Source of the DNA: Closterium sp. NIES-65
Taxonomy: Eukaryota; Streptophyta; Zygnematophyceae; Desmidiales; Closteriaceae
Assembly (NCBI GenBank): GCA_948144175.1
Contig: CANXME010002010.1
Location: 2,046,001 to 2,110,000 of the forward strand
Reading direction: 5' to 3'
Length of the DNA stretch: 64,000 nucleotides
Shown: positions 29,863 to 42,134 of the stretch, in pieces
How the letters are laid out: each line of letters starts with the position of its first letter
Position numbering within the stretch: the stretch's first letter is position 1
Notes under the pieces: generated by a model
Seen by the model: only the letters and a program-made list of their open reading frames with translations
The model's database searches: none
What the model was told of the DNA's origin: nothing
Translations under genes and position numbers: made by a program

Positions 29863-31988
29863 TCAAAGCTGGGTGGTAGAAGTAACACCCTGCTTGACAA
29901 GGTAGTCCTGGAGAGGACGGCGGGCGTTATCTATGTCGTGTTCAGGTACCCAGGTATCCTCGGAAGGATCATAGCCTTTCCAACGAATCAAGAGCTCCAA
30001 GGTGCCGCTACGTCGTCGTCGGTGCGCCAGAACGGTTTCGACTTCGTACTCGGGTTCCCCATTAACGATCACTGGGAGTGGCGGCGGCGGCTGGCGACCT
30101 TTGAAGACCGTATTTGGGTCCCGATAGGGCTTGAGAAGTTGAACATGGAAGGCATTGTGAATTCTCCAGGTAGCTGGTAAACGCAAGCGAAAGGTTACTG
30201 GAGTGACCTGCGCCTCGACGAGAAAAGGTCCGCTGAAGCAAGGTCGGAGCTTAGACGGAAGATGGCTAATGTCGAGATTGCGTGTATCCAGAAGCACTTG
30301 ATCGCCAATCTGGATGGAATGTTCGTTGCGACTCCGATCAGCGAGCTTCTTTTGTTGCTGCTGGATAGTCAGAAGACGTTTATGCGTGCGCTCCCACAAT
30401 TGGTGTATAGTGGAAATGAAGTCATGTGCGGGTTGCACCGTGGCGGGTATTGTTGGTTTCTGAGGCGTGAGTGGGTTGCGACCGTAACAAAGGAAGAAAG
30501 GAGTTTGCCCTGTTGCGGTGTGCGTGGCGTTGTTATACGCAAACTCGAGAACCGGTAGGTGTGCATCCCATTTAGAGATATCGTCTTTACACGCTGCCCG
30601 TAGAAGCTGTTCGACAATCTGGTTGAGGGGCTCTGTCTGACCATCCGTTTGGGGATGATAGGCTGATGACATGGCGAGTTTGGTCCCCATGAGCGACATG
30701 AGCTCCTTCCAGAATTTACTCGTGAATTTCGGGTCTGTGTCGGATATCAGCGTGGTTGGAATGCCATGTTGCGAGATGACGTAGCGGAAGAATGATTGCG
30801 CTGTCTCCTCGATGCGAGCCGTTGTGTGTGTCGGAATGAAGTGTCCCATTTTGGAGAATTTGTCGATGACGACTAGAATGGCGTCGTAACCAGCTTTGGT
30901 AGGTGGTAACCCAGTGATGAAGTCGAGGCTAACCACTTGCCAAGGCTGTTCAGGGACTGGAAGAGGCTGTAGTAACCCTGCTTTCTTTTGTTTGCTGCTC
31001 TTCATCCGTTGGCATGTGTCGCACGAGGTGACGAATTTTTGTACGTCATCCGCCATGTGGGGCCAATAATAATGCTTCGCAATACCGGCAAGTGTCTTGT
31101 TACTACCGAAGTGGCCCGCGTAGAGAACATCATGATATTCTTCGAGAAGTAACTGGCGTAAGGGAGGGTAATTAGGTACCCATATTTTTGTGGAGCCCTT
31201 GCGGTATGCGATGTCTTGATCCCATTGTAGAAGATGGCGCTTTTCTGCTACAGAGACTTCGGAGTCGATGGTGTATCCATGCGTGAAGAGTCCCTTCAAA
31301 AGTGGGTTCATGCCATCGACTTGTAGGGCGGCAACGTGTGCAGGGCGACTCAGTGCGTCTGCCTTGTTCTTGTGTCCCGGATTATACACGATGTCGTAAT
31401 GGAAGTGGGTTTCGAGAAAGTCAATCCACCGGACCTGCCGCCTGGAGAGTGTTGGTTGGGTCTTCAGGTACTTGAGGCTGCAGTGGTCAGTGTAGACGGT
31501 CGTTTTTCTTCCTTCGAGATAACACCTCCATGCCTTAAATGCATTAACGATGGCGAGGACCTCTTTGTTATGGATGGGGTGATTGAGTTCTGCCCCGTGA
31601 AGTTTTTTACTGAGGTATGCAAGGGGTTGCAGTCCCTTCCCTTGATCCTGCATGAGCACTGCGCCCACTGCTTGATCGCTAGCATCGGCCTCGATGACAT
31701 AGTCAAGTTCAGGGTCTGGCAGGATAAGGACAGGTGCGGACGTGAGTGCGATTTAAAGTTGTTCCACGGCTTCTTGGTGCTTCGCCTCCCATTGATATGG
31801 TGTATTCTTCTTCAACAGGTTCGTTAATGGTGCGGCAATCTTGGCGTAGTTCGGTACGAACCGGTTGTAGTAGTTGGCGAATCCAAGGAACTGTTGTAAC
31901 TCCTTCACGTTCTCAGGGGACTTCCACGTTTGCACTGCTTCGATCTTCTTAGGTTCCACGTGAACTCCTTGAGCGCTCACCATATGTC
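29863..31988 (-). pseudogene. Element G RNase H, integrase and chromodomain
   Basis: From 31988 leftwards: end of RT ([15 protein letters not shown], then [12 protein letters not shown]), a TAA stop near 31752, then RNase H (EADASDQAVGAVL, YTDHCSLKYL). The integrase zinc region is HDVLYAGHFGSNKT with CDTCQRMK, and the catalytic residues lie in VSLDFITGLP, LISDTDPKF and TDGQTEPLNQ. A C-terminal chromodomain follows (EVETVLAHRRRR, LIRWKGYDPSEDTWVPE). From 31668 to 29863 the frame is open for 601 codons. Chromodomains of this group can direct integration to heterochromatin, which fits a nested block, but that is inference. Confidence 0.92.
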
Positions 31989-31993
31989 CAAGG

Positions 31994-32256
31994 TGAGGAG
32001 CGGCGCGGGGCAGGGACGGGCGGCGCGAGGGCGGCGTCGGGCCGAGACGGGCGACGTGAGCCGTAGCGAAGGGGGGGCGGCGCGAGCCGCAGTAAGGGGC
32101 GGCGGGGCCGCAGATAGGGCGTGGGGAGGCCGCTAGGGCGGCTCGACGACGTAAGAGCCCGGAGCGCGACTCGGGCTGAGCGCGCTTCGGGCAGGAAAAA
32201 AAATCGATGTGGTGGGCCCTAGGCACAGTTCCCACGGGGGAACCTGCTCGATACCA
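31994..32256 (-). repeat. Second, partial leader copy of H, forming its non-LTR end
   Basis: Nearly identical to 39255-39513 (few substitutions) and includes the primer site TGGTATCGAGCAG. It stops at 31994 directly against the CAAGG duplication. In element sense it ends CTCCTCA, which resembles the LTR end TTCCTCA; integrase may have accepted it as an end. Confidence 0.8.
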
Positions 32257-32388
32257 TGAGGAAATTAGAACGAGAATGAAATGAACTATGAATAAAGTGG
32301 GTACAAGTACTAACCCTAATTGGGTTGTACCCCCTATGGGATACCCCACTATAGCCTACACAACAGCAAAAGCTAAAATGTTCTGACA
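32257..32388 (-). repeat. LTR-c of the H complex
   Basis: 132 bp. In sense it starts TGTCAGAACATTTTAGC and ends TTTCCTCA. It differs from LTR-b at three sites. Its TG end is joined to ATGTC and the inverted pol tail. Confidence 0.9.
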
Positions 32389-32692
32389 ATGTCTTCACCA
32401 AGGCACTTGCGCCTTGTGATCATCAGCGCTTCTGCACTCAGCTTGGTCTTGTGCCTGTCTTGCCTCACTTTCTCTCCTCTTGACCTTGCTTGTACTGTCA
32501 CATATATATATATACCTGCTCTTGCTTGTCTAGCTTTATATATATGTGTGTACTCTTGCATGTGAACTGGCCTTGTGGCCTTGTCGTTGTGCTCGGACTG
32601 TGTGGTGACTTTGTGATCCACCCTGAGCTTGCTTTGCTTTGCTTGACTGGTCTTGTGACCCCTTGTTCTCCCCCACTTTGCCTATGGGGGTG
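32389..32692 (+). pseudogene. Inverted 3' end of H: last codons of RNase H and polypurine tract
   Basis: On the plus strand it encodes VFTKALAPCDHQRFCTQ and ends PHFLSS at a TGA (32481-32483). After this come about 200 bp of tail and TATGGGGGTG just before LTR-b. It is exactly the part of pol missing from the minus-strand copy, which stops at ANTADV (32825). This is an inverted segment of one element rather than a separate element. Confidence 0.88.
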
Positions 32693-32824
32693 TGTCAGAA
32701 CATTATAGCTTATGCTGTTGTGTAGGCTATAGTGGGGTATCCCATAGGGGGTACAACCCAATTAGGGTTAGTACTTGTACCCACTTCATTCATAGTTCAT
32801 TTCATTCTCGTTCTAATTTCCTCA
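32693..32824 (+). repeat. LTR-b of the H complex, inverted
   Basis: 132 bp, plus orientation, TGTCAGAAC..TTTCCTCA. It differs from LTR-a at a single base (fifth position). Its CA end abuts GACAT of the minus-strand pol. Confidence 0.9.
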
Positions 32825-34720
32825 GACATCAGCAGTGTTGGCCTCAGAGGCCACATACACAAGCCGCAACTGTCCACACTGCTGTAGCTCACGAGCAAGG
32901 AAGTAGCGGAGAGCAATGTGCTTTGTTCTGTGCTCCAGTCGCTGCTCTCGACACAAGGCCAGCATGGCCTTGTTGTCTACGTACAGGACTAGAGGAGAAC
33001 GAGGCTACTCTCCAAGGTCGGTCAGCAGGTAGGTGAGCCAGCGAAGCTCCTGTGCAGCCATGGCCCCGGCGTAGATCTCAGCCTCACAACTGGAGCCGAG
33101 AACAGAAGACGAGCGAGTAGCCCGCCACGAAACAGAGCCGGAACCAAGGATGAAGGTGTAACCCTGTGACGACCGCTGGGTAGCCTGGTCGTCAGCCTAA
33201 GAAGCGTCCGCGTGCCCAGTAAGGACCACTGGACTCCGCCCTCCAAACACTAGCCCCATGCCCGACGTACTGCACAAGTAGCGCAACACCCTCTTCGCTG
33301 CAGCCATGTGCTCTGGTCGGTGTCTCCCAGGAGCAACATAGCGTGCAAGAATGCTAAGAGGGTATGCAAGGTCAGGTCGTGTGCAGGTCATCAGGTACAT
33401 GAGGCAGCCAACAAGCTCTGGGTACGGGCCACTCGACTCTACGGACTCATCCGAAGGCAGAGCTGAGAGTGAGTGGCGAGTAGACAGAGGAGTGGCCTGA
33501 GGCAAGGAGTACGTGAAGCCGAAGCGCTGAAGGACCTGCTGCACCATGTGTGACTAAGTTAGGGTAATGGTGCGGCGTGCTCTGTCTCGGGTGATCTGCA
33601 AGCCAAGGTAGCTATGCAGTTCACCCACGTCAGTGCACGTGTGTCTCTTCTGCAGCTCGGAATTCACGTGGGCGAGTCCAGCAGTGTCAGCTGTGGCAAA
33701 GACCAAGTCGTCGACGTACACGAGGATGTAGAACGGTGGCAGAGAGGTGTCGGTGCGCAGAAACAGCGACGGGTCGGCAGTAGAAGGAGCAAACCCAAGA
33801 GCCGCAAGCGTAGTCCTCAGTGTGTCGTGCCACTCACGTGGCGCCTGGCGGAGACCGTAGACTGGACGCCGGAGACTCCACTGGGTACCAGGAGGGAAAG
33901 ACCCAGTGAAGCCAGGTGGGCGGCGTAGCCAGATCTCCTCGTGCAGGCTGCCCTGCAAGAAAGCTGTGCTAAAGTCGAGAGAGTGCAGCTCGTAGTCACG
34001 GTGAGCAGCAACGTGCAGCAGTACCCGAAGAGTGGTCATCTTTGGGGTGGGGGAGAAGGTCTGAAAGTAGTCAACTCCCTGCCGCTGACTGAAGCCACGA
34101 GCCACGTAACGCGCCTTGAAGATAGGCGGAGAACCCGGCGGCCGCTTCACCCTGAAGATCCACATGCCACTGACGATGTTCGCCCCAGGAGGGGGGACAG
34201 TGTCAACGTAGGTGCCTGTGGACTTCCATGAAGCCATCTCTGCATCCATAACTGCCTGCCACTGAGAGGAGTAGGGACCCTCTATCGCCTCCGCGTAAGA
34301 GCGTGGAGTCGGGATGTCAAGTGAATCCGGGTCTCCCTCAGGGGTAAGCAGTACGGACACGAGATGAGGTGAAGCAGCAGCCAGACACTGGAACTCCTCC
34401 TGCCTGTCCTCAAGGACGTCCGTGCCAAGGGCACACTCACCCTTGACGTACGGAGGACCGACATACTCAGACTCAGCGACAAGACTAGCAGCGTAGTCTA
34501 AGCGACAGCGAGCAGCAAAGTCGACGAGCTCAGCAACTAGAGCAGACGCAGCAGTAGACTCAAAAGAAGGGTCAGTAACGACAGTAGCAAGGAGACGCGT
34601 GACAGTAGGACAAGCAGCACGAAGAGAGTTTGACTCTTGGTTGGCAAGAGCAGGAAGAGAGGACTCACGAGGAGAAGGCAAAGGGGCACGCAGAGGAGCA
34701 GTGGACGGACGCAGAGACAT
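32825..34720 (-). pseudogene. H complex RT and RNase H
   Basis: Minus strand: SLPALANQESNSLRA, RT core WIFRVKRPPGSPP, motif A LDFSTAFLQG with Asp present, YVDDLVFATAD, and an end at ITRDRARRTITLT followed by a stop near 33554. RNase H continues from 33547 (MVQQVLQRFGF) with DASxADDQ, SCEAEIYAG, and VASEANTADV at 32825. A few point stops break the frame. Confidence 0.85.
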
Positions 34721-36480
34721 CCGGTGCGTGCCAGGGACAGGAGGAGGACGCTGACGCGAACTGCGACCACTAGTGCGAGCAGCACGAACAGGCGACGCAG
34801 GGCGGGACGCAGGCTCACGATGTCAACAAGACCTCCAGTAGGACCAGTGTAGGGAGAAGGAGCAGGCAAAGGGGAGGTAGGCTGCAACTGTAGCTGTGAC
34901 GGGAATGGATGTGGACACTCTAAGGGAGGAGGAGGACCAGTAGAAGGTGGAAGACCAAAAACCTGATGCACGAGTGGAACAAAGTACGGTCGAGGCCGCG
35001 AGGCGACGCCAGAAGCAGCTCGGACAGCACCAGTACCCTCAGCAGGAGCATCCGCTCCAGCGGTTCCAGAACCTCCAGTAGCACCAGGAGCACCCCCAGC
35101 AGGACCGCCAGTGGTAGTCTCAGTGCTAACATTCTCAGCAGCACCAGCTCCAGTCGAACCCGCAGGCCCAACAGCTCCAGTACTCCCAGTACGAGCACCT
35201 CTGGGACCCGCGACCGCAGCACCGTCAGCAGCCGAAGAACCTCCAGCACCAGCAACACGGCGCCAGCGCTTGGCAAACCACTCTCGCAGCTCCTGTGGAG
35301 AAAGTGGCTCCCGGCGAGATGAAGCACCCGGAGAACCTCCAGGCGGAGCACCTCCACGCTCAGCACCCCTAGGCGTAGCAACCCCAGGCTCAGTACCCCC
35401 AAGCGTAGCACCCCCAGGCTCAGCACCCCCAGGCTCAGCACCCCCAGACGTAGCACCCCCAAGCTCAGCACCCCCAGACGTAGCACCCCTAGGCTCAGCA
35501 CCCCCAGACAGAGTACCCCCAAGCTCAGCACCCCCAGGCTCCGCACCCCCTGGTCCAGCACCCCCAGGCTCAGCACCCGCAGCAGCACCAGAGTCACCAG
35601 TAACCTCGACAGGCTCGACCGCGTCTACCTGGGACACACCTGAAGGGGCAGGACCCTGATGGGAAAGGGGGTCTACCTGGGGGGGACCTGGTACAAGGAA
35701 GAGCGGGGGTGGGGGGAGGGACGGAGTGCGGTAGGGGAAGAGGCGGTAGTAGGGGACCGACTCGTCAAACGTGACGTCCCAGGAGGACAGAACACGTCGA
35801 GAGGTGGGGTGGTAGAACTGCCACCCAGGCGCGTCAGGGGGGAACCCCAGGAAGACGCAAGGAGCAGCACGAGGGGACAGCTTGTCCGCAGCCAAGTCGC
35901 GGACAAACGCCCGAGATCCCCAGACCCGGAACGCCGACGCATCGCCAACGTTCCCCGTCCACAGCAAGGCTGGGGAGGTCTCCGGCCTGGAGACCCTGGG
36001 GTGGAGGTTGATCTAATGCGCCGCGTACCTCACCGCAAACGGCCACAGAAAATGGGGGGCAGCCGCATGCATCATAGACGTACAAGCGACGTCCATGACC
36101 ATGCCAATGCGGCGCTCAGCAAGCCCATTTTGCTGCGGGGAGTCCGGAAGCGTGAAGGTCTGATGAATGCCTCGTGTGCAACACTAGGCTCTCAGAAGGT
36201 CAGAGGAAAACTCTCCGCCTCTGTCCGACTGCAGGCGCAGAATAAGAAAGTCCGAGCCAAAGCTATGCCTGAGCTAGAGACGAGCTGCGCGGATCCAGTC
36301 GAACAGCACCGCAGTAACATCACCCTTGCTGCGCAAGGGGAAGACTATGGTGTAACGCGAGTAGTCGTCAACAACGAGGAGGAAGTAGCGCTCGTGACCC
36401 TGTCCACGAACGCGGGCTGGGCCCCACACGTCCATGTGAAACGGGGCCTCTGTCGGAGGAAACTGGGAGGAGTGAGGGGC
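34537..36480 (-). pseudogene. H complex integrase and linker
   Basis: The integrase first Asp (FHMDVWGPAR) is in the frame ending at 36274. The second Asp and Glu region around 36250-36080 is split by stops and frame changes. The frame 35967-34537 carries the conserved C-terminal part (RVWGSRAFVRDLAADKL, FDESVPYYRL), an array of GGAE/GGAT repeats (35590-35340), an LREWF motif and the Ala/Gly-rich linker up to RT. Confidence 0.82.
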
Positions 36481-38530
36481 AGCACGCTGGCGCCCCTCGA
36501 CACAGGGGACACAAGCAGGGCCAGGGCCCTGAGGAAGGGGAGGGAGGGACCAGGGGAGACCAGACACAAGAAGACGGGAGGCCATGCCTCTGAGCCGAAG
36601 CAGAGAGGGGTGGCCAAGGCGGTGGTGCCAGAGGAGAGTCTCGTGAGACAAGAGACGACACGAACAGGGGGCAGACTCAGGACTAGACCTGGACGCTGCA
36701 GCAAACACCTGACCCGACGCAGCTACCCTACCAGACTCAGCACCTGGAGGAGACGCAGTGGTCAGAGTGTACAGGCTCGACCCCGGCTGACGGGTGAACG
36801 TAGCCAGGTGTCGGCCTGTGCTAGCCTCTGTGCAGTGTGTCACTCGCTGACGCGCAGGAGTGAACTGGTGGACACCCGCATCCTGTAGGTCAGCACCACT
36901 CACCAGGTTCGTCGAGAACGAGGGGAGGTAGAGACCAAACAGGGTGCCAGAGGGAGCCGCCGGACACGGGAGGACTGTGGAGAAGCGAGACAGTACAGGA
37001 CCCCCAGAGGGGTCAGCCAGAGACACCGCCCTAGGCCGACTAAGCGGCGTGAGTGTGGTGCGGTTCCAAAAGAAGGAGCGAGACGCCCCAGTGTCAAGGG
37101 TGAAGGTGAGGGAGGCCGAAGCCGACGTAGTACCTGAGAGCGCAGACTCACCAGTACCTGAGGACGCAGACACACTAGCACCTAGAGCAGCAGCGTCGCA
37201 AGCACCTAGGGCATCAGCCGCACCAGTACCTAGGGCAGCAGTCTCAATGCCCGGATCGGGCGGGAAAAACCGGTAACAGTCACCCTTATCACTAATAGAC
37301 ACAGCATACATGGCAGAGAGAATAGCATCAAAGTCAAGATCAAAGATGGCAACACCCGCCCTAGACAGCTTGCCCCAGCGAGGGATCTCTGAGGCCTCCG
37401 GGAACTAGTGACGCCACGCGTCCGTCAGGCGGCCAAAGCAGCGCTGGGCGGGGTGCGCACCCCCACACTACTCACCCATACGGTCGCCGGTGCGCAGGAC
37501 GTAGGTGCACGGACCAAAACCTCCACCCCGCTGGCGTGTAGTGTACCACTCATGGAGCTGCTGAGGGGACAGGGTCTCACGACCGCGCTGCTGCTGCTGG
37601 CGCGAGCCATCACCGGAGCCACTCCTCTGCGAAGACCCGCGACCAGCTCCACCGCCACCCCCACCTCCACTCCCACCGCCACCCCCACTCCCCCCACCGC
37701 CTCCACCTCCACCTCCACCGCCCGCTCCTCCAGTTCCCTTGCCCCCCTTGCCCTTGCCAGGGCGGCGTCTCCCGCTAGGGGCAGACGCCGCACCGACCGA
37801 CTCAAGACCAAGGAGGTCGGCCGCAGCAGCAGAGGCAACAGAGGGCAGCAGGGGGGAGGGAGAACACCCCTCAAAGATGGGGGTGCGCGGGTCACCTCGA
37901 GAGGCTCCTACAGCGACTATGCTCTTCTCTATAGTGAGGAGGGCCTTCTCGAGGAGGTCTATAGTGAGTGTGGTGGGACAGACAGAGAGAAAGTGGTCCC
38001 TGACTACTCGAAGGGAGTCAGGGAGGCGAGTGACTAGGAAGTACAGAGTGATGTACATAGGGGGGGGGGTTCGTGGCGCAGAAGTCAGCAGGAAGTGCAG
38101 CGCAGTAGCGATTGTCACTAGTGCGGAGGTGCGTAATGAGGTCAGCTACGGTGGGAAAGGCAGCAAGGTCAGGGAAGAGGTACGGTAGCATGAGACGGCT
38201 CAGTGCAGCAGTGGCAGGGGAGGAGTAGCGCGCGACTACAGCGTCGTACAAGGTCTGAGCACTCTTGTACTGACTAAAGTGCGCACGCTCGGAGGTAGGG
38301 AGGTGGCGACGCACAGCAAGACGTGCAGGAGCGACGCGCTTTGCCCACTGGGAGCGAACAGTGGCGTCAGCATCAGCAGCAGGGGCAGGGGAAGCGCTAG
38401 AGGTAAGGTCAAAAAGAGAGAGGTCGTCTGCCCTATCGCACTGTAAGAAAAGCTGCAGCTCATCTACCCAGACGTCAAAGTCAATGGCCCGACCCTCAGC
38501 GTCAAAAGCGAGGACACTATGGATAGCCAT
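36274..38530 (-). pseudogene. H complex gag, protease and pre-integrase
   Basis: Gag starts at 38530 (MAIHSVLAFDAEGRAIDF) and runs in frame to a G run at 38060-38069, which shifts it. Gag continues at 38050-37468 with the Gly-rich tract and LHEWY motif. The Cys/His region reads CTYVLRTGDRMGE, then a stop. The protease LDTGASRSFF (Thr for Ser, an allowed DTGA form) and LWHHRLGHPS are in 37311-36274. Confidence 0.85.
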
Positions 38531-39513
38531 GACGAGAGACGACTAGCAGTGCAAACAGTAGGGTGAGGGCAGTACAGGAGAACAAGGCGCTGTGCTCACT
38601 AGACTGGGCAGCTCGGGCGGTCCGGAAGTAGGGCAGCTCAGCGGCTCGACTGCCGGGCGGCTCGGCTGCGCGGCTGCTGGGCGACTCGGCTGCTGGGCGG
38701 CTCGGCTGCTGGGCGGCTCGGCTGCTGGGCGGCTCGGCTGCTGGGCGGCTCGGCTGCTCGGGCGACTCGGCGGCCACGCGGCTCAGTGGGTCTGCCGCTG
38801 GGCGGCTCGGTGGCGCTGGTTCAGGGCAGCGCGGCGGTCGCAGTAAGGGTGGCGGGTCGGCCGCAGGTAGGGCGGCGGGTCGGCCGCTAGTAGGGCGGCG
38901 GGTCAGCTGCTAGTAGGGCGGCGGGTCGGCCGCTGGGAGGGCGGCGGGTCGGCCGTAGGTAGGGCGGTGGGTCGGCCGCTAGTAGGGCGGCGGGTCGGCC
39001 GCAGTTAGGGCGGCGGGTCGGCCGCTAAGTAGGGCGGCGGGTGGGCCGCAGGTGGGTCGGCGGGTAGGCCGTAAGTAGGGCGGCGGTAGGGCCAAAGGTA
39101 GGGCGGCGGTACGGCCGCAGGTAGGGCGGCGAGTAGGGCCGTAGGTAGGGCGGCACGCGACGCCGCCAGGGAGGCGCCGGGTCGTGCGGCGACGGGCCGG
39201 GACAGGCGTAGCGGGGCCGGGACGGGCGGCGCGAGGGCGGCGTCGGGCCAGAACAGGCGGCACGGGGCCGGGACGGGCGGCGCGAGGGCGGCGTCGGGCC
39301 GAGACGGGCGACGCGAGCCGCAGCGAAGGGGGGGCGGCGCGAGCCGCAGTAAGGGGCGGCGGGGCCGCAGATAGGGCGTGGGGAGGCCGCTAGGGCGGCT
39401 CAACGACGTAAGAGCCCGGAGCGCGACTCGGGCTGAGCGCGCTTCGGGCAGGAAAAAAAATCGATGTGGTGGGCCCTAGGCACTGTTCCAACGGGGGAAC
39501 CTGCTCGATACCA
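38531..39513 (-). repeat. GC-rich leader of H
   Basis: No gene is seen. 38640-38770 is an array of GGCGGCTCGGCTGCTG units, 38860-39130 an array of GGGCGGCGGGTCGGCCG units, and 39184-39330 repeats of GGGCCGGGACGGGCGGCGC. The primer site TGGTATCGAGCAG is at 39501-39513 on the minus strand. Confidence 0.78.
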
Positions 39514-39645
39514 TGAGGAAATTAGAACGAGAATGAAATGAACTATGAATGAAGTGGGTACAAGTACTAACCCTAATTGGGTTGTACCCCCTATGGGATA
39601 CCCCACTATAGCCTACACAACAGCATAAGCTATAATGTTCGGACA
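39514..39645 (-). repeat. LTR-a (outer 5' LTR) of the H complex
   Basis: 132 bp. Its TG end (sense TGTCCGAAC) lies directly against the CAAGG duplication at 39646-39650, a normal integration end. Confidence 0.92.
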
Positions 39646-41077
39646 CAAGGAACTGAACTTTTTTCAACGCAAACTCGCTCTTGGATAGTTTTACATAGAA
39701 GCGTTCTCGTCGAAGAATTTCAAACACCCGTCGTAGATGCTCAACGTGCTGCTTCATGTCTTTCGAGTAGATCAGGATATCGTCCAAATATACCACCACG
39801 CACTCGTTCAGAAGGGGCCGAAGGATGTGGTTCATTTCCGCCTGAAATGTGGCTGGTGCGTTAGTGAGTCCGAATGGCATTACGAGATACTCGTATGAAC
39901 CATACCGAGTTCGAAAGGCGGTTTTGTGGATAGAGTTGTCTGCCATACGAATTTGCCAGTATCCCGATCTGAGGTCGAGCTTGGAGAATACCGTAGCACC
40001 GCGAAGTTGATCGAGTAAGTCGTCGATCCGTGGTATCGGGTATTTATTTTTTACAGTCTGCTTGCTCAAGGCTCGGTAGTCGATGCACATTCGCAGACTT
40101 CCATCTGGCTTCGGAGTGAAGAGAACTGGAGCTCCGTACAGCGAAGTCGAAGGTCGAATCAGCCCTTTCTCCAGGAGATACTCTATTTGTTTTTTCATAT
40201 CGGCAAGCTCTGTCGGGCTCAGCCGGTATGGTGCTCGGAACGTTGGCTTGGACCCCGGCTCTTCTACGATCTCGTGTTGATGTGTCCGGTATGGCGGTAG
40301 TTGATCAGGTAAATCGTCGGGGAGAACGTCCTGGAACTCTTCAAGAATTTTCTTGACTGCTGGAGGAAGTTCCTGGGTCTGCTTCTCTCCGTTGTCTGCT
40401 TTGTTGACTATCGCCATGAATCCCGCCGTGGTCCGTTTGACGTCCTTTTCAAAGCGTGCGAGTGTCTCGACTGGAATATTTTCCGTGTCGTCCCATTTGG
40501 GAAGGCTGATTTTCCTCCCGTTGTTGTTGATGTTGGCCGTCCGGTTAACCCAGTTGATCTCGGGGTTGAACTTTTTAAGAAAGTCTCTCCCGAAGATTAC
40601 GTCGAGTCCTTTGATATTTGTGACGGGGAGAGCAGGCTTCCATCGAAGGGGTCCAATATGGAGTAGTAACCGTGTTTCCCCGTAGATGGGTAGCTTACTG
40701 CCATCCACCATCGTTGCAGAGAAGCTTGAGGACTTGATGTCACCTCCGAGTCGATCGATAGCCTTTTTGTCATAGACGCTGTGCGACGCCCCGCTGTCCA
40801 CGAGTGCTTGGAGGCGCTGTCCGTTGCAGATCACCTCGAGCAGGAGTGGTGAGCGTTGCTTGGAGTACCCAAAATTAGTCTCATTAATAGGATCATAGGG
40901 TACATCCCAATATTTAGTACACACCGTGGTTCCACTGTTTTCTCCTGGACAACTAGCTGGCCTGGGCTGCGTGGAGAAAGGCTCCTCTCCAATGCCAGGA
41001 GTAGAGGTAGTAACCGTACAGGTTGACCCTGAGTGGGTGGATCCGGTCGACGCCTGCGATCCACTAGATGCATCCAA
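39646..41077 (-). pseudogene. Element G protease and reverse transcriptase
   Basis: Minus-strand frame from 41077: a retropepsin region with [11 protein letters not shown] and [11 protein letters not shown], a linker, then gypsy RT ([33 protein letters not shown], motif [23 protein letters not shown]). It ends at KKVQFL where the H complex inserts. Within this part the frame is open and catalytic residues are present. Confidence 0.9.
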
Positions 41078-41986: not shown

Positions 41987-42134
41987 TGTCAGATGATTAT
42001 ATATCGCTGATGCATATATGTAGGCTGTACTGGGGTAGCCCATAGGGGGTACAACCCAATTAGGGTTGGTACTTGTACTTGTTTCATTCCATAGTGCATC
42101 ATTCCTCGCCTCTATCTCAACATGGTATCGAGCA
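41987..42134 (+). repeat. 5' LTR and primer site of element I
   Basis: LTR 41987-42122 (136 bp, TGTCAGATG..TCTCAACA), then TGGTATCGAGCA (42123-42134). Shares GGGGTAGCCCATAGGGGGTACA-type core with the H LTRs, seen here as GGCTGTACTGGGG. Confidence 0.87.

What the first reader, a model, noticed from the sequence alone, without database searches (positions are those of the whole stretch)
32257..32829. Autointegration scar: inverted 3' end of H with the same 5 bp at both junctions
Seen directly: minus-strand pol of H stops at ..GCTGATGTC (32825). The missing end of pol, its polypurine tract and an LTR lie inverted beside it. One junction is LTR CA-end|GACAT (32824|32825), the other LTR TG-end|ATGTC (32388|32389), and ATGTC/GACAT is one 5 bp site of pol. 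Known: retroviral and Ty1 integrases can insert cDNA ends into their own cDNA, giving inversions with the usual target duplication. Inference: this is such an inversion, later fixed in the chromosome. Random inversion would not hit two exact LTR termini and duplicate 5 bp.
Basis: partly seen in the sequence, partly recalled or inferred. Interest (0 to 1): 0.86.

Follow-up and report, generated by a model that had tools for sequence, protein, structure and literature searches.

The report
Fossil of a self-integrated retrotransposon circle
A jumping element of a green alga appears to have pasted both its ends into its own DNA, forming a scrambled circle, and slightly more than one full turn of that supposedly dead-end circle then became part of a chromosome.

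Summary
In a Ty1/copia element (H, minus strand), the last 304 bp before the 3' LTR plus that LTR lie inverted. Both junctions fall exactly at LTR termini and share one 5-bp pol site (ATGTC/GACAT). Both ends of the composite (31994-39645) carry one 5-bp duplication (CAAGG) in a gypsy chromovirus, whose reading frame runs through when the flanks are joined. The repeat distance, 7257 bp, equals one turn of the circle expected from inversion-type autointegration. Best reading: a cDNA autointegrated into its own pol, and a little more than one turn of the resulting circle entered the chromosome by recombination or break-repair copying. Nested insertion, random inversion or assembly duplication explain it poorly. 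Autointegration circles are known; this chromosomal capture is a new variant, seen once. How the circle entered, and how the 6-bp right end formed, are inferred. A genome-wide survey could not be run because the search machine stopped answering. The host is a Closterium alga, probably strain NIES-65.

The parts
31989..31993 (.). left target-site duplication CAAGG in host gypsy chromovirus pol
   Evidence: joining 31993 to 39651 gives one gypsy RT frame that runs through the join (a stop lies further inside the left flank)
31994..31999 (-). TCCTCA (sense): last 6 bp of an LTR, right terminus of the composite
   Evidence: identical to the 3' end of LTRa/b/c; ungapped homology to the first-turn leader stops at 32000
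32000..32256 (-). second-turn PBS and 5' leader (257 bp) of H, a repeat of 39257-39513
32257..32388 (-). LTRb, second-turn copy of the 5' LTR; its TG end abuts ATGTC at 32389
32389..32393 (+). ATGTC, one copy of the 5-bp self target
32389..32692 (+). inverted 3' end of pol, 3' untranslated part and polypurine tract (segment B)
32693..32824 (+). LTRc, the original 3' LTR, inverted with B; its CA end abuts GACAT at 32825
32825..32829 (-). GACAT (+), i.e. ATGTC in pol sense, the other copy of the self target
32825..38530 (-). gag-pol of H up to the self target (segment A): gag_pre-integrs, SH3_retrovirus and RVT_2 domains; broken into several open frames. Gag start codon placed by eye
38531..39513 (-). 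PBS and GC-rich repeat leader of H (first turn)
39514..39645 (-). LTRa, 5' LTR of the composite, TG at 39645
39646..39650 (.). right target-site duplication CAAGG

Best explanation
Step 1 (strongly supported by anatomy): integrase joined both LTR ends of one copia cDNA to a staggered 5-bp site, ATGTC, in the cDNA's own pol. In the inversion outcome this closes a 7257-bp circle: LTR - leader - gag - pol - ATGTC | inverted LTR - inverted PPT/pol end - GACAT | back to the LTR. Step 2 (the product is seen, the route is inferred): slightly more than one turn of that circle (7257 bp + LTR + 257 bp of PBS and leader) was joined into an H insertion that carries the TSD CAAGG in a gypsy pol. The route was either a crossover between circle and element, or copying from the circle during repair of a break near the element's 3' end. 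Step 3 (inferred): the right side was closed without visible homology, 6 bp from the LTR terminus, either by end joining that finished the copying or by a later deletion.
For: Both junctions lie exactly at LTR termini and share one 5-bp site in inverted orientation. Both copies of the site carry a state found in only 2 of 24 matches in relatives. The family makes 5-bp TSDs: of 11 paired elements examined, 8 match exactly, 2 differ by one base and 1 by two; about 8 sites are independent, of which 5 are exact. LTRa-to-LTRb distance is 7257 = 6821 + 132 + 304, one circle turn. LTR+leader copies match over 389 bp with 11 differences. In the first 320 bp 4 changes fall to Ha (39645 side), one of them (244) poorly polarised, and 3 to Hb; 2 states shared by both and absent from 13 relatives lie in a gappy part of the alignment and are weak. 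This fits one source, copied and then decaying. Outer TSDs are identical and the joined flanks give a gypsy frame through the join. An apparent tandem sharing one LTR exists in this family (L038: PPT upstream, PBS downstream), so multi-unit arrays do form. Inversion circles from autointegration are described in print (passages of PMC4751563, and PMC2644782).
Against: One locus only; no reads seen. The target ATGTC shares TGTC with the LTR start, so junction 2 reads GACA-T-TGTC, a small palindrome that a foldback process might also favour. Junction 1 has 1 ambiguous base. The right end has no homology signature and lies 6 bp from the terminus, which needs an extra event. PMC4751563 found only one Ty read consistent with autointegration, and it was of the deletion type, so such circles may be rare. 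No earlier case of a captured inversion circle turned up in the papers searched, so the capture step has no direct precedent here.
Confidence: 0.8

Rival explanations
1. Ordinary nesting: a second family member inserted in opposite orientation into H's pol at ATGTC, then deletions removed most of it.
For: Such nesting occurs in this genome: in L036 a family member sits inverted in another member's pol, 18 bp (start to start) upstream of the same site, with 5-bp TSD CTCAG/CCCAG and the outer element continuing beyond it.
Against: Nesting never joins the start of B (GACAT side) to an LTR TG end. It would need a further deletion or insertion landing on exactly that base and a third LTR followed by leader. 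The outer H lacks its own B in direct orientation.
Confidence: 0.06
2. Reverse-transcription template switching or foldback self-priming made the inversion without integrase.
For: 3-LTR complexes with one TSD have been ascribed to template switching (PMC1950507, main text read). Junction 2 contains GACA-T-TGTC.
Against: A foldback primed by GACA on TGTC would overlap the two, giving GATGTCAGAACA, not the tandem GACAT|TGTC seen (own reasoning). Template switching between RNAs gives direct, not inverted, order and does not predict both exact termini plus a 5-bp duplication.
Confidence: 0.07
3. Assembly artefact: a chimeric or hairpin read, or copies joined wrongly.
For: Repeat-rich genome. Several insertions recur with the same flanks on different contigs, so the assembly holds duplicated stretches.
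Against: Exact LTR termini, a 5-bp duplication, identical outer TSDs with a host frame through the join, and private changes in both repeat copies are not what misjoins give.
Confidence: 0.05
4. Variant entry routes that keep autointegration: a linear dimer cDNA autointegrated, or the circle was transcribed and reverse transcribed again, so that the composite entered as one cDNA. (Not exclusive of step 1; the 0.8 of the best explanation covers capture of the circle by any route, this one included.)
For: Canonical TG at 39645 and the 6-bp CA end with TSD; read-through RNA around the circle could give the second leader.
Against: The PPT next to the last LTR is inverted in the circle, so normal plus-strand priming and a complete LTRa are hard to explain (own reasoning from the known replication scheme).
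Confidence: 0.15

Closest known systems
Inversion-type autointegration circle of retroviruses and Ty1 (2-LTR-inverted circle; Shoemaker 1980 and Garfinkel 2006 known here only as cited in PMC4751563)
   Same: Both LTR ends joined to one internal site and a segment with one LTR inverted; a short inverted target duplication is expected from the reaction.
   Different: Those are extrachromosomal and called nonproductive (PMC2644782); here more than one turn sits in a chromosome within a normally flanked insertion.
Multi-LTR complex insertions of Triticeae and other grasses (PMC1950507)
   Same: Internal LTR, outer LTRs alike, one flanking 5-bp TSD.
   Different: Those have two complete bodies in direct order; here one body with an inverted end and only 257 bp of a second body.
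Ty1 cDNA entering the genome by recombination with a resident element (review passages of PMC5911963)
   Same: Offers a route by which extrachromosomal cDNA joins a chromosomal copy.
   Different: There the donor is ordinary cDNA; here it would be an autointegrated circle.

Membership tests
inversion-type autointegration product | both outer LTR termini joined exactly to internal element DNA | tested here: met
   32388|32389 and 32824|32825 at TG and CA ends
inversion-type autointegration product | target duplication of the family's TSD length, inverted | tested here: met
   ATGTC/GACAT, 5 bp; family TSDs 5 bp, 8 of 11 exact
inversion-type autointegration product | closed circle with one forward and one inverted LTR | tested here: inconclusive
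   indirect support only: repeat distance 7257 bp equals one turn and sequence runs on into LTR + leader; no circle DNA seen
inversion-type autointegration product | dependence on active integrase | not testable with these tools
   needs an active element
Ty1/copia LTR retrotransposon | LTR TG..CA, PBS, PPT, RVT_2 type reverse transcriptase | tested here: met
   naming the sequence after the LTR a PBS and the purine run before it a PPT is from position and recall
ordinary nested insertion | host element present on both sides of the insert in direct orientation | tested here: not met
   H has no direct-orientation B; contrast L036
template-switching complex (Sabot and Schulman) | two complete bodies in direct order with three LTRs | tested here: not met
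   second body is 257 bp of PBS and leader; one segment is inverted

The most novel reading that the evidence does not exclude
The inversion circle was not a dead end. A break at the just-integrated 3' LTR end (strand transfer is known, from recall, to leave gaps there) was repaired by invading the autointegrated sister circle, copying round it for more than one turn, and end joining to the last 6 bp of the LTR. In one repair event a failed cDNA was thus written into the chromosome.
Probability: 0.35. Interest if true: 0.68.

Novelty: new variant of a known kind. Interest (0 to 1): 0.52.

Why it matters
Autointegration is described as a suicidal, nonproductive end for retroviral and retrotransposon cDNA (PMC2644782, listing and passages). 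A fossil with more than one turn of an inversion circle would show that such circles can reach a chromosome. It also gives a sequence signature: an LTR terminus next to antisense internal sequence, a 5-bp duplication, and a repeat of one circle turn. That signature lets autointegration and circle capture be counted in assembled genomes. Eight paper searches bearing on this listed no title or abstract opening that describes a chromosomal example. Only the start of each abstract is shown, three of the lists were capped (20 of 26, 20 of 699, 15 of 3,209), and the library is open-access only, so priority is not claimed.

Tried and rejected
Random inversion: rejected, since both breakpoints are at exact LTR ends with one 5-bp site. 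Solo LTR pairs: L043/L046 show an inverted-looking LTR pair about 460 bp apart, but this is a solo LTR beside another element's 5' LTR. L047: an LTR followed 29 bp later by antisense family sequence at 80-84% identity, taken as ordinary insertion in an older relative. Leader end at 32000 as a natural family variant: not seen in L031, but only that one relative was compared over this stretch, so the test is weak. Dating: H's LTRs differ by 1, 3 and 4 of 132, similar to other elements (0-5 of 131-133); no rate is known, so no age is given. The genome-wide count of other LTR terminus | internal junctions, the copy number of the two junctions and the search for an allelic empty site were planned, but the genome search gave no answer. 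Papers PMC1676259 and PMC10691919 are not held. Two further paper searches (on Ty1 multimers, on Closterium retrotransposons) gave little.

Full report
What was checked. The stretch 31500-34000 and its surroundings were read directly and compared with the whole window. The LTR of H is 132 bp, TGTCAGAACA...TTTCCTCA. Three copies belong to H: LTRa 39645-39514 (-), LTRb 32388-32257 (-) and LTRc 32693-32824 (+). They differ at 1 (a-c), 3 (b-c) and 4 (a-b) positions of 132.

Junctions. In the sense of H (minus strand) pol runs ...CTGCTGATGTC and then meets TGAGGAAATT, the reversed CA end of LTRc (32825|32824). The reversed pol end ...GGTGAAGACAT then meets TGTCAGAACA, the TG end of LTRb (32389|32388). 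ATGTC is thus present at the end of segment A and at the start of segment B (B is the 3' end of the element from the pol site to the LTR). In relatives the two segments match with an overlap of exactly 5 bp in L031, L038 (second copy), L045 (plus copy) and L048 (plus copy); elsewhere the match stops one base earlier at the variable base. Of 24 matches to the site in the fetched relatives, duplicates included, 14 read GATGTT, 2 GATGTC (L031 and one copy in L048), 3 GATATC and 5 otherwise. Both halves of H read GATGTC, which fits one site of one element.

LTRb is not the end of the element. It is followed by TGGTATCGAGCAGG (called a primer-binding site from its position and from recall) and more leader, 257 bp in all, so 32000-32388 repeats 39257-39645 with 11 differences over 389 bp. 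Polarised on 13 related 5' ends (some of them copies of one insertion), the first 320 bp hold 4 changes assigned to Ha (39645 side), one of them at position 244 poorly supported, and 3 to Hb. Two states shared by Ha and Hb but absent from the 13 lie in a gappy part of the alignment and are weak. The other four differences, beyond 320 bp, were not polarised. This fits one source with independent decay afterwards.

The outer ends. The composite begins at 39645 with TG and ends at 31994 with ...TCCTCA, which equals the last 6 bp of the LTR; homology to the first-turn leader stops at 32000. On both sides stands CAAGG (31989-31993, 39646-39650). Joining the host flanks across one CAAGG gives a gypsy reverse-transcriptase frame that runs through the join; a stop lies further inside the left flank. 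The host element carries RVT_1, RNase H, integrase and chromodomain matches. So the composite sits in one integrase-type insertion.

The circle. Inversion-type autointegration of a linear element LTR-A-ATGTC-B-LTR gives the circle LTR-A-ATGTC-rc(LTR)-rc(B)-GACAT. Its length from the window pieces is 6821 + 132 + 304 = 7257 bp, and the distance from LTRa to LTRb is 7257 bp. The chromosome holds this circle opened at the LTR, read once round and then on through LTR, PBS and leader. A linear inversion fixed in the chromosome would not give the extra LTR and leader. No circle DNA was seen; the circle is inferred from this arithmetic and order.

Controls. One search classed the flanks of 43 LTR copies of at least 90% identity in L029-L053 plus the window; weaker LTR matches, seen, were left out. 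17 have a PPT upstream and unrelated sequence downstream, 12 unrelated sequence upstream and PBS downstream, 1 both PPT and PBS (L038, an apparent tandem), 2 neither, and 11 have some family-internal sequence in one flank. Of these 11, four have antisense family sequence of more than 85% identity at or within 18 bp of the LTR: the two H junctions (100% by construction, since H is the reference) and the two ends of L036. L036 is an ordinary inverted nested insertion: the outer element continues on both sides and the TSD is CTCAG/CCCAG. Its site lies 18 bp from H's, so the pol end may attract insertions. The other seven are sense-strand or more distant matches (L041 twice, L042, L044, L047, L049, L052). 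The loci come from the best LTR matches of the genome (40 scored of 1598 first-look candidates; all 40 lie in sequence I hold), so this is a biased sample, and several loci are copies of one insertion. Junctions 1 and 2 and the right end, with up to 3 substitutions, occur among 54 held sequences (351,752 bases, overlapping) only in the window and in L001 and L005, which are the same place.

Family TSDs. Of 11 paired elements, 8 have identical 5-bp TSDs, 2 differ by one base and 1 by two. L032, L033 and L035 share one site and L034 and L037 another, so about 8 independent sites, 5 of them exact.

Mechanism. Shown by anatomy: LTR termini at both junctions, one 5-bp site, more than one turn, one outer TSD. 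Inferred: that integrase made the junctions in a free cDNA; that the circle was joined to an H element by crossover or by repair copying; that the last junction (leader | TCCTCA) is an end-joining scar or a later deletion. The repair-copying version explains the overrun and the homology-free right end in one event; the crossover version needs a later deletion that happens to stop 6 bp from the terminus. The data do not decide.

Against it. One locus; no reads; target and LTR share TGTC, so junction 2 is a small palindrome; the planned genome-wide survey could not be run because the genome search gave no answer after (21 requests unanswered). In yeast one study found a single read consistent with autointegration, of the deletion type (PMC4751563), so inversion circles may be rare.

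Host. The 120 best of 7919 protein hits to an H pol frame are all named Closterium. One hit's contig (NIES-65, 7,027,731 bases) has the length of contig C1642 of the window's genome, so the genome is probably Closterium sp. NIES-65.

Literature seen. Passages of PMC4751563, PMC9694575 (three LTR elements of a fungus said to form circles mainly by autointegration), PMC12786077, PMC9258317 (only a reference-list mention), PMC5911963, PMC11044480, PMC3952818 and PMC2644782; the main text of PMC1950507. PMC2644782 calls autointegration products nonproductive deletion or inversion circles and gives opposite-strand to same-strand joining as about 1 to 9 for HIV-1. Eight searches bearing on the point listed no title or abstract opening about a chromosomal fossil (the last three lists capped). 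Subscription journals are mostly not held, so priority is not claimed.

Recounts changed wording, not odds: the site alleles are now given as 14, 2, 3 and 5 of 24; the L036 distance is 18 bp; the shared leader states are marked weak; the circle row of the membership test is now inconclusive.

Verdict. Real, well explained at its core, a new variant of a known process, and a usable signature; a single case with an unresolved entry step.

Noticed in passing
L038 8042-8173: Family LTR with PPT upstream and PBS downstream: an apparent tandem array sharing one LTR, a product of recombination or template switching; its far end was not fetched.
   Followed up: partly
L036 5186-9212: Inverted nested insertion of a family member 18 bp upstream of the same pol site used in H; possible local insertion preference near the pol end.
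   Followed up: partly
L032/L033/L035/L045, L034/L037, L043/L046, L044/L049: Insertions with the same flanking sequence occur on different contigs, so the assembly holds haplotype copies or large duplications.
   Followed up: no
window 32385-32393: Junction 2 reads GACA-T-TGTC on the minus strand, because the self target ATGTC happens to contain the first four bases of the LTR.
   Followed up: partly
window 38774-39166: Leader of H contains GC-rich tandem repeats of mostly 23 bp; leaders differ strongly between family members while LTRs stay alike.
   Followed up: no
window 41987-42104: A second, about 81% similar copia LTR, followed by PBS-like and leader-like sequence, lies on the plus strand close to the host gypsy element.
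   Followed up: no
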